From an uncultured Lachnospiraceae bacterium (lineage in GTDB: Bacteria > Bacillota > Clostridia > Lachnospirales > Lachnospiraceae): a stretch of DNA of 35,481 bases. Below the pieces are notes generated by a model. That model did not search any database. It worked only from the letters and a program-made list of their open reading frames with translations, and was not told where the DNA came from. This document shows positions 31,164 through 34,664 of this stretch, one piece after another (position 1 is the first letter of the stretch; each line of letters begins with the position of its first letter). The stretch is taken from positions 1-35,481 of the forward strand of contig CACZBW010000026.1 in the NCBI GenBank assembly GCA_902779575.1. The letters are read 5' to 3'. Both the position numbers and the translations under genes were made by a program.

Positions 31164-31460
31164 TCTGCGGAATTCCTGAATGCTGTGGCAGATCTAAAGC
31201 TGGAGTATACAGAGGCTGAGACAACGGAGGAAATTGATATGTGTAAGGGGATGGAAAAATATACTTTGAGAATAAGAGCAGAGGGAAAAGCAGAAGGAAG
31301 GGCAGAAGGAAAAGCAGAGGGGAAGAAAGAAGGTATCGATAAAGCCTGCTTAGAAAACATCAGGACAGTAATGAGGAAAGCAAACTATACTGTTGCACAG
31401 GCAATGGAGTTTCTGGATATTCCTGCAGATGACCGCCAAAGATATATGTCTATGATATAA
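31164..31460 (+). pseudogene. C-terminal remnant of an Rpn/PD-(D/E)XK transposase-like nuclease
   Basis: The open frame follows a TAG at 31161 and has no proper ribosome binding site; a GTG at 31185 would give 91 residues. It contains a run of EGKAEGRAEGKAEGKKEG and then a helical end (NYTVAQAMEFLDIPADDRQRY). This is the standard tail of Rpn-family recombination-promoting nucleases of Clostridia. The nuclease domain, which should hold the PD-(D/E)XK motif, is missing, so this is a decayed fragment. It marks the start of the accessory region. Confidence 0.75.
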
Positions 31461-31473
31461 CGTGCAGGGTATG

Positions 31474-31499
31474 AAAAGGCGGCCGAAATTCCGGCCGCC
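31474..31499 (-). terminator. Terminator of the SH3 peptide gene
   Basis: GGCGGCCG (31478-31485) pairs with CGGCCGCC (31492-31499) over a six-base loop. On the minus strand TTTT follows the stem. The sequence could also end the remnant transcript on the other strand, though without a T-run there. Confidence 0.75.
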
Positions 31500-31559: not shown

Positions 31560-31871
31560 TTATCTCAGGAAAGAAGCATTCGCATATCCCCAGATTCCGT
31601 TGAAGCATACATATCTGTAATAGCATGCAACTCCGTTGATTCCGGTTCCCTGTACGATCGTGCCATTGGTAAAAACACTGTAGCCGGGATAAAGCTGTGC
31701 GATCTCGTTATACGGGCTGTAGCTTGTTCCGGATCTGAGTGCGAGGTATGTGCCGTTGCAGTCGCCAACCGTCATGTAGAAACCATTCTGGTAGCCATAT
31801 CCGCCGGCTGCATTCTCAAGTTCCTGTGCGTCAATGCTCTGCTTTTCGATGTTCTTGTTCTCTTCTGCCAT
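31560..31871 (-). CDS. Small SH3-type peptide with double-glycine leader (bacteriocin-like precursor)
   Basis: This 103-residue protein has two parts. Residues 1-24 match the double-glycine leader used by peptidase-containing ABC exporters: Ile at -12, Glu at -8, Leu at -7, Ala at -4, Gly-Gly at -2/-1 (QELENAAGG). The predicted mature 79 residues resemble a bacterial SH3 domain (YLALRSGTSYSPYNEIAQLYPGY near the middle, then a GIWGYANASFL end), rich in Gly, Tyr and Asn with three Cys. It has a good GGGAGA ribosome site, its own promoter and terminator. No exporter, immunity gene or modification enzyme is in view. Function is unknown: a secreted cell-wall-targeting peptide, signal or toxin are all possible. 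I do not recognise a named family. Confidence 0.8.
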   Translation of the reverse strand: MAEENKNIEKQSIDAQELENAAGGYGYQNGFYMTVGDCNGTYLALRSGTSYSPYNEIAQLYPGYSVFTNGTIVQGTGINGVACYYRYVCFNGIWGYANASFLR

Positions 31872-31983
31872 GATCTTTTCTCCCTTGTTAATTATTTCAT
31901 ACTAAATGCTTCTGAAATCTGGGTGGTTGCCAACTACTGATATTAACACCCCGGAGAACTGATTTTTTTCTCCGTTCTGGTTT

Positions 31984-32013
31984 ATTATACGATATATTCC
32001 GTGGGAGAGCCAA
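31984..32013 (-). promoter_or_regulatory. Predicted promoter and structured leader of the SH3 peptide gene
   Basis: On the minus strand TTGGCT (32008-32013) and a perfect TATAAT (31984-31989) are 18 bp apart. The leader of about 105 bases contains a CGGAGAA/TTCTCCG hairpin (31952-31974) near the start of the RNA. Confidence 0.65.
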
Positions 32014-32560: not shown

Positions 32561-33874
32561 ATGAAGGAAAACGACAATGACTTAACTGAGATTTTAACAC
32601 AAGTATTAAACGAGATGAAGGAGGAACTTGGTGACAAGTTCAACCTTGAAACCATTAACCTTGCAGAAGTTGAGCGGCGTACAGGTCTTAGCCGCGCGAA
32701 ACTGCGCCTTATAAAGAAGAACAACTTTGTAGTCAAACCGCATGGATTAACCGGACGGCATGCTCCTGTCACCCTTCTCAGCGGGTTTACGGGGATCATT
32801 GACTCGCTTCTGAGGAAGGGTGTCACGAATTCTTCTGTTGTTTTTGAGCGGCTCAAAGATAACGGTTTCAGTGGCGGGAAAACAATCGTTAAAGATTATA
32901 TTTCCGCCCACAAAGAGCTTGTTCCGGCAAAACGTCAGGTTGTTGCGCCGCAGGGAAACCGCGGTAGGCGGTATCAGACACCGCCCGGCGAATCCTATCA
33001 GATGGACTGGGGATTCGTGGAAGTTGAAACAGAAAATGGCAAATCTTATAAGGTTGCTTGTTTTGCCATGATCTGCCATTGCTGCGGACACCGTTACGTT
33101 GAGTTTTTTCCCAACGCCCGCCAGGAGAACCTGTTCATCGGCATGATTCATGCCTTCCTCTACATGGGTATTCCTGAATATATCCTTACGGACAACATGA
33201 AAAGTGTTGTGATCCGTAGGGATGATGAAGGCCGTCCCATCTGGCAGAAGGATTATGAACTGTTCATGGGCAACCTGGGATTTGAAACAAGGCTGTGTAA
33301 ACCCCGTCATCCTTTTACAAAGGGCGCTGTCGAGCGGCTGGTTCGCTTTGTAAAAGAAAATTTTCTGCCGGGACGTATTTTTACCGAGCTTACCGACCTG
33401 AATTATGAGGCTATCCGGTGGTGCGATACACAGAACAGCGTTTATCATCGGGCAGTAGACTGTATACCCGTTCAGAAGCATGCCGCCTTGTGCATGCAGC
33501 ACGCATCCGTTCTCGAGGAAACGGTAGAACTTTCGTACTATCTGTGTCCGGAAAGGAGGATTTCTTTCGACGGCTTTGTAAACTATGAAGGACGCCGTTT
33601 TGGTGTTCCTTACTGGTATGAGCAGAAAACCTGCCGTGTTAAACGGGATGGTTATATCCTCTATATTTATGATACGGCGATGACGAAAGTTCTTACCACG
33701 CACGATGTTACCTGGAGCCGCAGGGACAGCTTCTGCAAAGAGCAGTATGCAGTCAATCAGCCGGAGGAACATCCGACAGCTCCCGTCAAAGCACATATCC
33801 AGCAGCTGGATCCGAAGGAATATGATCCTGGTTTCAGCCGGTTTGATTTTGAGGGGGTAGCACAGTATGAGTGA
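32561..33874 (+). CDS. istA: IS21-family transposase IstA
   Basis: This DDE-type recombinase cuts and joins the IS ends. In 437 residues there is an N-terminal DNA-binding region with an AEVERRTGLSRAKLRL helix-turn-helix and an rve-type catalytic core. Catalytic Asp149 (YQMDWGFVEVE), Asp211 (YILTDNMKSV) and Glu258 (TKGAVERLVRFVKENF) are all present. The C-terminal beta-rich domain is intact. It overlaps istB by eight bases, so translation is coupled. The ATG at 32561 has only a weak ribosome site, which would keep expression low. Confidence 0.93.
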   Translation: MKENDNDLTEILTQVLNEMKEELGDKFNLETINLAEVERRTGLSRAKLRLIKKNNFVVKPHGLTGRHAPVTLLSGFTGIIDSLLRKGVTNSSVVFERLKDNGFSGGKTIVKDYISAHKELVPAKRQVVAPQGNRGRRYQTPPGESYQMDWGFVEVETENGKSYKVACFAMICHCCGHRYVEFFPNARQENLFIGMIHAFLYMGIPEYILTDNMKSVVIRRDDEGRPIWQKDYELFMGNLGFETRLCKPRHPFTKGAVERLVRFVKENFLPGRIFTELTDLNYEAIRWCDTQNSVYHRAVDCIPVQKHAALCMQHASVLEETVELSYYLCPERRISFDGFVNYEGRRFGVPYWYEQKTCRVKRDGYILYIYDTAMTKVLTTHDVTWSRRDSFCKEQYAVNQPEEHPTAPVKAHIQQLDPKEYDPGFSRFDFEGVAQYE

Positions 33875-34664
33875 AACCCTCTATGATCAGATCTGCAGCC
33901 ATGCCGCCTACCTGAACCTGGATCTTGGACTTCAGGAACTGGCAAAATTTGTTTTTGACCATCAGTTCGATGATGGCCAGATCAAAGCTGTCAGCAGCCT
34001 CCTGGAGCATCTTGCCAGCAATAAACGCGACAACATCGTAGCAACACTCTTGAAGATGAGCCGTCTCCCCCTCAAGGAGCCGAAAACCTTCGACAACTTC
34101 GATTACAGCAGACTTCACGGCAAGAATATCGAAGCCCTTAAGGAACTGTCCAATCTGTCAGCTTTATACGCCCGTAAAAACCTGGCGTTCATAGGACCAC
34201 CCGGTGTAGGTAAGACACATCTTGCTATGGCATACGGCCGCCTTTGCTGTGAAAAGGGATTGAAAGCCTACTTTCTGAAAGCAACAGAGCTTAACCAGAA
34301 GTTACTGGATGCAAGAAAGTATGGTAGGGAAGCAAACGTTATCAACGGCCTTGTCAAGCCTTCATGCCTGATCATAGACGAAGTAGGACGCTGTGTCTTT
34401 GACAAAGAGAACACCAGGATGTTTTTTGACATCATAGACCGTCGCTATAACAAGGAGCTTCCCAACACGTTGATCCTGACAAGCAACAAAAGTCCTGATA
34501 AATGGAGTGAATTCTTCAGTGAAGATTCTTCTCTGCTGTGTGCTTTGAACAGGATCTTTGATGCGGCGACAGTATTTATGATTAAAGGGAATACATACCG
34601 TGGCCGCAAATGTGAAACAGTAGCATTATCAACCAGGGATGTGGCAGCACTCCCTAAACCGTAA
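33867..34664 (+). CDS. istB: IS21-family ATPase helper IstB
   Basis: This AAA+ ATPase related to DnaC assembles on target DNA and activates IstA. The 265 residues have Walker A GPPGVGKTH (110-118), Walker B CLIIDEVG (167-174) and a sensor-like LILTSNKSPDKWSEFF. The length is typical. The start ATG overlaps the end of istA, preceded by a GAGGGGG sequence that can act as its ribosome site. No frameshift or stop is seen. Confidence 0.94.
   Translation: MSETLYDQICSHAAYLNLDLGLQELAKFVFDHQFDDGQIKAVSSLLEHLASNKRDNIVATLLKMSRLPLKEPKTFDNFDYSRLHGKNIEALKELSNLSALYARKNLAFIGPPGVGKTHLAMAYGRLCCEKGLKAYFLKATELNQKLLDARKYGREANVINGLVKPSCLIIDEVGRCVFDKENTRMFFDIIDRRYNKELPNTLILTSNKSPDKWSEFFSEDSSLLCALNRIFDAATVFMIKGNTYRGRKCETVALSTRDVAALPKP

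What the first reader, a model, noticed from the sequence alone, without database searches (positions are those of the whole stretch)
31560..31871. SH3-domain peptide behind a textbook double-glycine leader
Seen: the leader has hydrophobic residues at -12, -7 and -4, Glu at -8 and Gly-Gly at -2/-1. The 79-residue core is SH3-like, Gly/Tyr/Asn-rich, with three Cys. The gene has its own promoter, a structured leader and two downstream hairpins. Known: such leaders are cut and exported by peptidase-containing ABC transporters, mostly for short bacteriocins and pheromones. Bacterial SH3 domains often bind peptidoglycan. Inference: this could be a class of exported wall-binding effector or antimicrobial that is not a classical bacteriocin, using an exporter elsewhere in the genome.
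Basis: partly seen in the sequence, partly recalled or inferred. Interest (0 to 1): 0.7.

Follow-up and report, generated by a model that had tools for sequence, protein, structure and literature searches.

The report
Scattered export-tagged SH3 protein genes
A gut-type bacterium (Lachnospiraceae) carries scattered genes for small SH3-domain proteins behind a peptide-export tag, and shared promoter signatures tie these orphan genes to two sigma factors, so the cell probably makes and secretes them as a coordinated set, most likely to act on its wall.

Summary
Observation confirmed, with one correction: the gene is on the minus strand (ATG at 31871). It encodes a double-glycine leader and a 79-aa core that is a bacterial SH3 (SH3_3) domain, supported by relatives, one confident AlphaFold model and Foldseek. 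The own genome has two C39 NHLM-type exporter pairs, unlinked to the gene. The gene belongs to a dispersed family centred on one Lachnospiraceae genus (four members in this genome, in two subfamilies), under purifying selection. No candidate immunity gene was seen to recur beside it.

The main new result is regulatory. These unlinked genes share ECF-sigma-type promoters. Class 1 (T[TA][AG]GC[CT]-N16-CGTAT, window 31987-32013) precedes this gene and most relatives in the genus. Class 2 (TGGAT-N14/15-CGTAT) precedes several others, other GG peptides and proteins with Sec-like signals. Each class matches one ECF sigma factor: class 1 by co-occurrence, class 2 by hit counts per genome, and both by a site before the sigma operon or its partner gene. 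Each sigma has a small partner protein ending in a leader-like helix with Ala-Ala instead of Gly-Gly; relatives lie beside NHLM exporters. I infer that the partner couples sigma activity to export. Export, wall binding and coupling are untested.

The parts
31560..31871 (-). CDS, 103 aa: double-glycine leader plus SH3 core (stop codon 31560-31562)
31800..31871 (-). Double-glycine leader, residues 1-24 (Ile-12, Glu-8, Leu-7, Ala-4, Gly-2, Gly-1)
   Evidence: leader profile hit at G000:C26:31800-31871, E 2.4e-6; this leader is one of the 18 rows of that profile
31563..31799 (-). Predicted mature protein, 79 aa, SH3_3-type beta barrel; Cys38 and Cys83 both present in 22 of 24 aligned members (possible disulfide, inferred)
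31987..32013 (-). Class-1 ECF-sigma-type promoter TTGGCT-N16-CGTAT, starting 142 nt before the ATG; shared with unlinked GG-SH3 genes; similar sites precede the sigma-B operon
31872..31986 (-). 5' untranslated region with GGGAG ribosome-binding site; largely conserved in the G001 orthologue, only weakly structured
31478..31499 (-). Intrinsic terminator (9-bp stem, 8 G-C, TTTT); may also serve the + strand fragment ending at 31460

Best explanation
The gene makes a small secreted SH3-domain protein. Step 1 (comparative evidence): transcription starts at an ECF-type promoter read by sigma-B, an ECF sigma factor (match at G000:C5:4055-4504). The same promoter type stands before unlinked sibling genes and before sigma-B's own operon, so the dispersed genes form one regulon. 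A second ECF factor, sigma-A (match at C21:10819-11328), reads the class-2 promoter of other GG-SH3 genes, other GG peptides and some proteins with Sec-like signals. Step 2 (inferred from leader anatomy and exporter co-occurrence): the leader docks on the C39 domain of an NHLM-type ABC exporter (pairs at C9 and C22), is cut after Gly24, and the 79-residue core is exported and folds outside. Step 3 (inferred): the SH3 barrel binds a cell-wall or surface ligand, as SH3b domains of autolysins do, and acts as a wall-associated or matrix protein rather than a bacteriocin. Step 4 (hypothesis): the small protein encoded with each sigma factor ends in a copy of the leader-recognition helix without the Gly-Gly and couples sigma activity to exporter occupancy.
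For: SH3: SH3_3 hits among members; another GG-leader gene in this genome (C4, 85 aa, found through its class-2 promoter) matches SH3_3 at 32.1 bits against the 27-bit cut-off; AlphaFold core pLDDT about 90-95 with six strands; Foldseek PDB hits include the phage phiSM101 endolysin (4krt, probability 1.00, E 0.045) and CPE1231(468-535) of C. perfringens (2kt8, probability 1.00, E 0.062, target TM 0.63). Leader: Glu-8 and GG invariant in 18 leaders I chose (wider set under evidence against). Exporter: both own C39 proteins exceed the TIGR03796 cut-off (897.1 and 896.7 against 853.3 bits). All 13 genus genomes with GG-SH3 have C39 against 3 of 6 without (Fisher p 0.021); outside the genus 6 of 8 against 16 of 78 (p 0.003). 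Linkage: a GG-SH3 gene lies next to NHLM ABC2 in G010:C97 (with the C39 subunit behind it), in Ruminococcaceae RUG12832 and in Oscillospiraceae SIG461. Regulon: 13 of 13 exact class-1 sites in 1.19 Mb of held DNA lie 92-142 nt before GG-SH3 starts; 18 of 21 genus Cys-type genes have it within one mismatch, against 2 of 536 other genes. Sigma-B: in 8 of 9 genomes with class-1 GG-SH3 promoters and 0 of 10 others (p 1.2e-4); a class-1-like site precedes the sigma-B operon in 8 of 8, six exact but with N17 and two with N16 and one mismatch, against 1 exact and 6 within one mismatch of 529 control genes under the same N16/17 rule. Sigma-A: class-2 counts 8-20 per genome in 6 sigma-A genomes, 0-6 in 13 others (p 3.7e-5).
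Against: No wet-lab evidence of cleavage, export or binding. Four of five AlphaFold models had mean pLDDT 46-50 and no PDB or BFVD match reaches E 0.001. Leader conservation is looser in the full set: in the 29-row alignment only the last Gly is invariant; Glu-8 is missing in L027, L041 and L043, L010 and L041 read Ala-Gly, and L040 has lost the leader. Raw genus-wide counts of the class-1 pattern are not enriched (43 against 80 for the reversed pattern). Outside the genus the promoter is not recognisable at L016, L106, L109 and L123; L114 has one mismatch. G028 has a GG-SH3 gene but no C39 hit. The nine exporter-operon starts I checked have neither motif within one mismatch. A radical SAM/SPASM gene follows the GG-SH3 gene at four orthologous loci. 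Genomes of one genus are not independent, so the p-values overstate the evidence; sigma-B is defined here as the 35-39% identity group, and G003 has a 31% relative.
Confidence: 0.74

Rival explanations
1. It is a bacteriocin (large class II type) that kills relatives, with immunity supplied elsewhere.
For: Double-glycine leader, C39 exporter, 7 of 29 members match the Bacteriocin_IIc model; cores vary between species, and two of the four own copies (C27, C14) differ from this one by more than a quarter.
Against: No immunity-like small gene recurs at non-orthologous loci among 34 loci compared (components printed); copies C26 and C11 have nearly identical cores, unlike a toxin set; SH3 domains are binding modules (general knowledge).
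Confidence: 0.12
2. The leader is the docking site for a modifying enzyme and the SH3 core is a modified peptide (RiPP).
For: A radical SAM/SPASM gene directly follows the GG-SH3 gene at four orthologous loci, G008:C24, G009:C7, G014:C14, G016:C140 (two of the four proteins scanned); radical SAM genes also lie in L111 and L114; NHLM exporters often serve RiPPs (Haft 2010, passages read).
Against: No such gene recurs at the other genus loci; the core is a conserved folded domain; the two radical SAM proteins scanned against NCBIfam score far below every curated cut-off shown.
Confidence: 0.08
3. It is a secreted signal (pheromone-like) that reports envelope state to kin.
For: Promoter type shared with its sigma operon; two near-identical cores.
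Against: Large folded domain; no receptor-like gene recurs beside it in the components printed.
Confidence: 0.06
4. The class-1 and class-2 sites are ordinary sigma-70 promoters or sites of another regulator, and the match to the ECF factors is shared ancestry.
For: In this window TATAAT overlaps the site; genomes are related; class-1 counts are not enriched genome-wide.
Against: Near-fixed spacing; two classes, each matching a different ECF factor and each found before that factor's operon or partner gene; the leaderless copy L040 has lost the site too.
Confidence: 0.1

Closest known systems
PCAT/AMS double-glycine substrates; LahT protease of Lachnospiraceae C6A11 (PMC6363468; abstract and passages read)
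   Same: Same leader chemistry: hydrophobic -12, -7, -4, Glu -8, small -2/-1; same bacterial family; protease tolerant of many cores.
   Different: Lah precursors sit in one gene cluster with the transporter; here the cargo is a folded SH3 domain encoded away from the exporter.
NHLM/NHLP export cluster TIGR03794/03796/03797 (Haft 2010, PMC2887384; passages read)
   Same: Own exporters are this type: ABC1 with C39 over cut-off, ABC2 just under cut-off (707.6 and 701.8 against 709.4), plus a small HlyD-like gene upstream (its TIGR family was not tested).
   Different: No NHLP or Nif11 match for this cargo; neither 'SH3' nor 'sigma factor' occurs in that paper's main text.
Cyanobacterial EbfG1-4 / PteB (PMC4997328; abstract and section list seen)
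   Same: Small GG-motif proteins exported by a C39 transporter with a non-bacteriocin role (biofilm).
   Different: Different organism; the abstract mentions no SH3 domain and no ECF regulon.
Microcin V exporter carrying foreign small proteins (PMC10231218; passages read)
   Same: Shows that a C39 exporter can release small proteins such as EGF and eglin C with the expected mass after leader cleavage.
   Different: Engineered fusions in Gram-negative bacteria.
FlgM/FliA flagellar anti-sigma export (recalled, no call)
   Same: Idea that a sigma regulator reports export capacity.
   Different: Type III machinery; here only proposed, through a leader-like helix.

Membership tests
Bacterial SH3 domain (SH3_3, PF08239) | Profile match of the protein itself | tested here: not met
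   No Pfam family at E<=10 for P0002
Bacterial SH3 domain (SH3_3, PF08239) | Profile match of homologues | tested here: met
   7 of 29 aligned members match at E<=1, best E 2.4e-4; homologous repeats in proteins with Sec-like signals
Bacterial SH3 domain (SH3_3, PF08239) | SH3 beta-barrel fold | tested here: met
   Six strands, core pLDDT about 90-95 in the best of five models; Foldseek probability 1.00 to 4krt and 2kt8 at E 0.045-0.062; moderate, because four models had low confidence
Bacterial SH3 domain (SH3_3, PF08239) | Wall or ligand binding | not testable with these tools
   Needs binding assay
Double-glycine leader substrate of a C39 exporter | Leader with -12, -8, -7, -4, GG residues, conserved among homologues | tested here: met
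   exceptions L010, L027, L040, L041, L043
Double-glycine leader substrate of a C39 exporter | C39 exporter in the genome | tested here: met
   Two in own genome
Double-glycine leader substrate of a C39 exporter | Cleavage after GG | not testable with these tools
   Needs protease assay or peptidomics
Class II bacteriocin | Adjacent immunity gene | tested here: not met
   No immunity-like small gene recurs at non-orthologous loci among 34 loci (printed components, ORFs of 40 codons or more within 3 kb)
Class II bacteriocin | Killing activity | not testable with these tools
   Needs inhibition assay
NHLP/Nif11 precursor family | NCBIfam NHLP or Nif11 leader match | tested here: not met
   No NCBIfam family at E<=10
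ECF sigma regulon | Shared two-block promoter, sigma presence, site before the sigma operon | tested here: met
   class-1 raw counts not enriched genome-wide
ECF sigma regulon | Transcription depends on the sigma factor | not testable with these tools
   Needs RNA-seq or reporter

The most novel reading that the evidence does not exclude
Export-coupled gene control: each ECF sigma factor is paired with a small protein that ends in a decoy of the double-glycine leader (L-12, E-8, L-7, V-4, but Ala-Ala where cargo has Gly-Gly). The decoy competes with cargo for the C39 domain of the NHLM exporter, so when exporters are free the decoy is held there and the sigma factor is released to transcribe dispersed cargo, including GG-leader SH3 proteins. 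One relative of the decoy (L275) has a genuine Gly-Gly, and in G392 (L271) the order is ABC2, decoy, sigma, then two GG cargo genes. This would be a peptide-exporter counterpart of flagellar FlgM.
Probability: 0.3. Interest if true: 0.9.

Novelty: new variant of a known kind. Interest (0 to 1): 0.72.

Why it matters
Some GG peptides are orphans without a nearby or co-regulated exporter, and assigning them is named as a need in the pneumococcal PCAT paper (PMC7018657; passages read). Here the promoter does part of the assigning: it gathers unlinked GG cargo, sigma factors and a leader-like partner protein into one testable regulon. It also suggests that double-glycine export is used natively for a folded wall-type domain which relatives carry in proteins with Sec-like signals, so calling every GG-leader gene a bacteriocin is unsafe. 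The partner protein family is found in 11 genera of Lachnospiraceae (13 of 397 genomes), with an ECF sigma hit within the 3-kb locus at 11 of 17 places (one weak) and an NHLM ABC2-like hit at 4 of 17; relatives also occur in records titled Ruminococcaceae and Oscillospiraceae.

Tried and rejected
Plasmids and phages: no tblastn match to P0002; viral contigs: 30 pattern stretches, none a relative. Rfam: nothing above chance. RNA leader structure: z -1.62, not pursued. Tree of SH3 cores: two GG subfamilies, one on the side of the SH3 domains from proteins with Sec-like signals; one or two origins not resolved (2 changes; 11 of 26 forks open). RiPP maturation by radical SAM kept only as a rival. 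Leader-likeness of the sigma partner: 11 of 12 score in the top 0.9-5.5% of 329 small control ORFs, but the own-genome sigma-B partner does not (score -0.2, 38%), and the top controls include GG peptides and partner relatives that my filter left in. In all 12 the best window lies directly before Ala-Ala. The VIA-align library was not available. The NAR 2021 ECF reclassification paper is not held, so ECF group membership was not checked. That I found no earlier description rests on searches in an open-access library only. Corrections: an earlier count said 44 class-1 hits; the recount is 43.

Full report
What is there. The finding is a 103-aa ORF on the minus strand, 31871 to 31560. The window is a whole contig, G000:C26, of a 3.55-Mb, 75-contig genome. 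Named relatives in GTDB contigs are uncultured Lachnospiraceae and other Clostridia, several with rumen-type isolate names (24 loci).

Family. In 98 genomes searched with the protein, 17 match; by sequence, 14 of these carry GG-type SH3 genes and three (G003, G004, G006) match only through larger proteins without a GG leader. The own genome has four matches at unlinked places: C26 itself, C11 (89% identical over the match), C27 (73%) and C14 (46%). A family profile matched 5 of 397 genomes drawn evenly from the bacterial family at E<=1e-8, so the family is rare outside the genus. C26 against C11 has 28.5 synonymous and 3.5 non-synonymous changes in the core. In an alignment of 24 members (of 25 available from the window and the genome-contig scan; L112, cut at its start, was left out), Cys38 and Cys83 are both present in 22.

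Fold. P0002 has no Pfam match, but 7 of 29 members match SH3_3. Proteins of the same genus, with Sec-like signal sequences by eye, carry one to four copies of the same GYLALR...NEIGKLY...GYVN domain. The model has a disordered leader and a confident barrel from about residue 30 on, but only one of five models was confident. Foldseek finds the phiSM101 endolysin, NlpC proteins and CPE1231 in the PDB at E 0.04-0.12 and phage SH3 or endolysin proteins at E 0.004-0.02 in BFVD.

Leader and exporter. LahT, a C39 protease of another Lachnospiraceae, binds leader residues -4, -7 and -12 in a hydrophobic groove and tolerates very different cores (PMC6363468, abstract and passages); the leader here fits, with a small residue at -4. 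Conservation is strong but not absolute: exceptions are L010, L027, L040, L041 and L043. Both own C39 proteins are NHLM ABC1 with an ABC2 partner and a small HlyD-like gene upstream. All 13 genus genomes with GG-SH3 genes have C39; of the six without, three have it and three do not. Of eight genomes outside the genus with GG-SH3, six have C39; the two misses are G028 and G452, and G452 has an NHLM ABC2 gene at the start of the contig, just upstream of the GG-SH3 cluster. These two comparisons used different E cut-offs (1e-10 and 1e-5). GG-SH3 genes lie next to NHLM ABC2 in G010:C97, RUG12832 and SIG461. Among 34 loci compared, the widest-shared neighbour families are an aldo/keto-reductase-like protein (8 loci, partly orthologous) and ABC transporters (5 loci: G010:C97, RUG12832, RUI297, RUI563, SIG461); a radical SAM/SPASM gene follows at four orthologous loci (the reductase named by eye). 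Of 33 exporter loci scanned with a leader pattern, 13 with short flanks, I read only five as carrying a GG peptide beside the exporter (L131, L133, L146, L157, L160; L131 and L160 are the same gene).

Regulon. Upstream regions of unlinked copies share two promoter types. The exact class-1 pattern occurs 13 times in 1.19 Mb of held DNA (overlaps counted) and every hit lies 92-142 nt before a GG-SH3 start; that DNA had been fetched around such genes or exporters, but not by this motif. Among 21 genus Cys-type genes with enough upstream DNA, 18 have class 1 within one mismatch. The three exceptions are L026 (two mismatches), C27 (exact class 2) and L040, the copy that lost its leader. Four of six Cys-less genus genes have exact class 2; of the other two, the own C14 copy stands behind two GG-peptide genes of which the first has exact class 2, and L031 has neither. 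L014 and L025 had too little upstream DNA, and L015 and L044, which have exact sites, were missed by the script. Among 536 control genes none has exact class 1, two are within one mismatch and four have exact class 2; all four encode proteins with Sec-like signals by eye. Genus-wide, the class-1 pattern gives 43 hits against 80 for its reversed control, so counts alone show nothing. In the 30 loci examined, hits outside ORFs include GG-SH3 genes, a GG peptide of the own genome (C4, 61 aa), a GG protein with a second SH3 lineage (G002:C123), two kinds of Sec-type gene and a few without a clear target. Class 2 in the own genome gives 19 hits against 2 in the control: by my reading 5 GG-leader genes, 6 Sec-type genes, 1 sigma partner, 5 inside or across other ORFs and 2 unclear.

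Sigma factors. A search with the ECF factor found beside the G005 exporter (L147) gave two main groups. Sigma-A (73-100% identity) is in G000, G001 (with one in-frame TGA), G005, G010, G011 and G018. Sigma-B (35-39%) is in G000, G001, G002, G008, G009, G012, G014 and G015. More distant ECF factors (20-31%) occur in several genomes and were not counted. Class-2 counts are 19, 9, 20, 16, 8 and 12 in the six sigma-A genomes and 0-6 in the other 13 (exact Mann-Whitney p 3.7e-5). Class-1 GG-SH3 promoters occur in nine genomes, eight with sigma-B; the ninth, G016, is 72% complete. Counting the 31% factor of G003 as sigma-B raises p from 1.2e-4 to 0.0011. A class-1-like site stands before the sigma-B operon in 8 of 8 genomes, and exact class 2 before the sigma-A partner gene in G000 and G001. 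Beside the exporter and sigma-A of G005 lie a SpoIIE-type phosphatase, a STAS protein and an HATPase_c_2 protein, a partner-switching set.

Partner protein. Each of the eight sigma-B genes is preceded by a 68-89-aa protein, and sigma-A in G000 and G001 faces a related one. Its most conserved part reads about LSxxELxYVNAAGxPE, the leader-recognition pattern with Ala-Ala at the cleavage place. Relatives occur in 13 of 397 genomes of the family, at 17 places (some weak, and L281 looks like a GG peptide instead). An ECF sigma hit lies within the 3-kb locus at 11 of 17 places (L267 weak) and an NHLM ABC2-like hit at 4 of 17 (L268, L271, L274, L280). In L271 two GG cargo genes follow; in L275 the relative has a real GG. 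No Pfam or NCBIfam name fits the ones scanned (a CsgA hit at E 0.0015 is below its cut-off). That it is an anti-sigma or export-coupling protein is my inference.

Verdict. The protein is best read as exported SH3 cargo of an NHLM peptide exporter under an ECF regulon. Rough confidence by step (my judgement): SH3 fold 0.95; functional leader 0.9; regulon 0.9; sigma-B as its factor 0.85; NHLM export 0.85; wall binding 0.55; export coupling 0.3.

Noticed in passing
window 32561-34664 (+): Two adjacent ORFs (437 and 265 aa) that look like the istA/istB pair of an IS21-type element, about 700 bp upstream of the GG-SH3 gene; identified by eye, not by a family search.
   Followed up: no
window 31185-31460 (+): 91-aa ORF with KAEG/RAEG repeats that looks like the tail of an Rpn-type transposase/nuclease, convergent with the gene; by eye.
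   Followed up: no
L133 1129-1416 (+); L275 1267-1479 (+); L111 2433-2789 (+): GG-leader proteins whose core looks like a zinc ribbon (Cys-x-x-Cys pairs), one directly upstream of a C39 exporter; GG leaders on small folded domains are not limited to SH3.
   Followed up: partly
L192 (G002:C123) and L046 3920 (-) (G018:C23): GG leaders on a second, different SH3_3 lineage; with the own-genome C4 gene (L193) this suggests more than one joining of GG leader and SH3 domain.
   Followed up: partly
L043 4557-5897 (+), L049 8306-9670 (+): Radical SAM/SPASM genes directly downstream of the GG-SH3 gene, at four orthologous loci in the genus; possible maturase or chance neighbour.
   Followed up: partly
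L109 2037-2420 (+): In RUG12832 the sigma partner is fused to sigma region 4 only; in L111 the two are separate overlapping genes. Deletion or assembly error not resolved.
   Followed up: no
L217 (G001:C99:8198-8701, -): Sigma-A copy of the sister genome reads with one in-frame TGA.
   Followed up: no
L040 568-855 (+) (G001:C143): A family copy that has lost both the GG leader and the class-1 promoter, a natural contrast to its relatives.
   Followed up: yes
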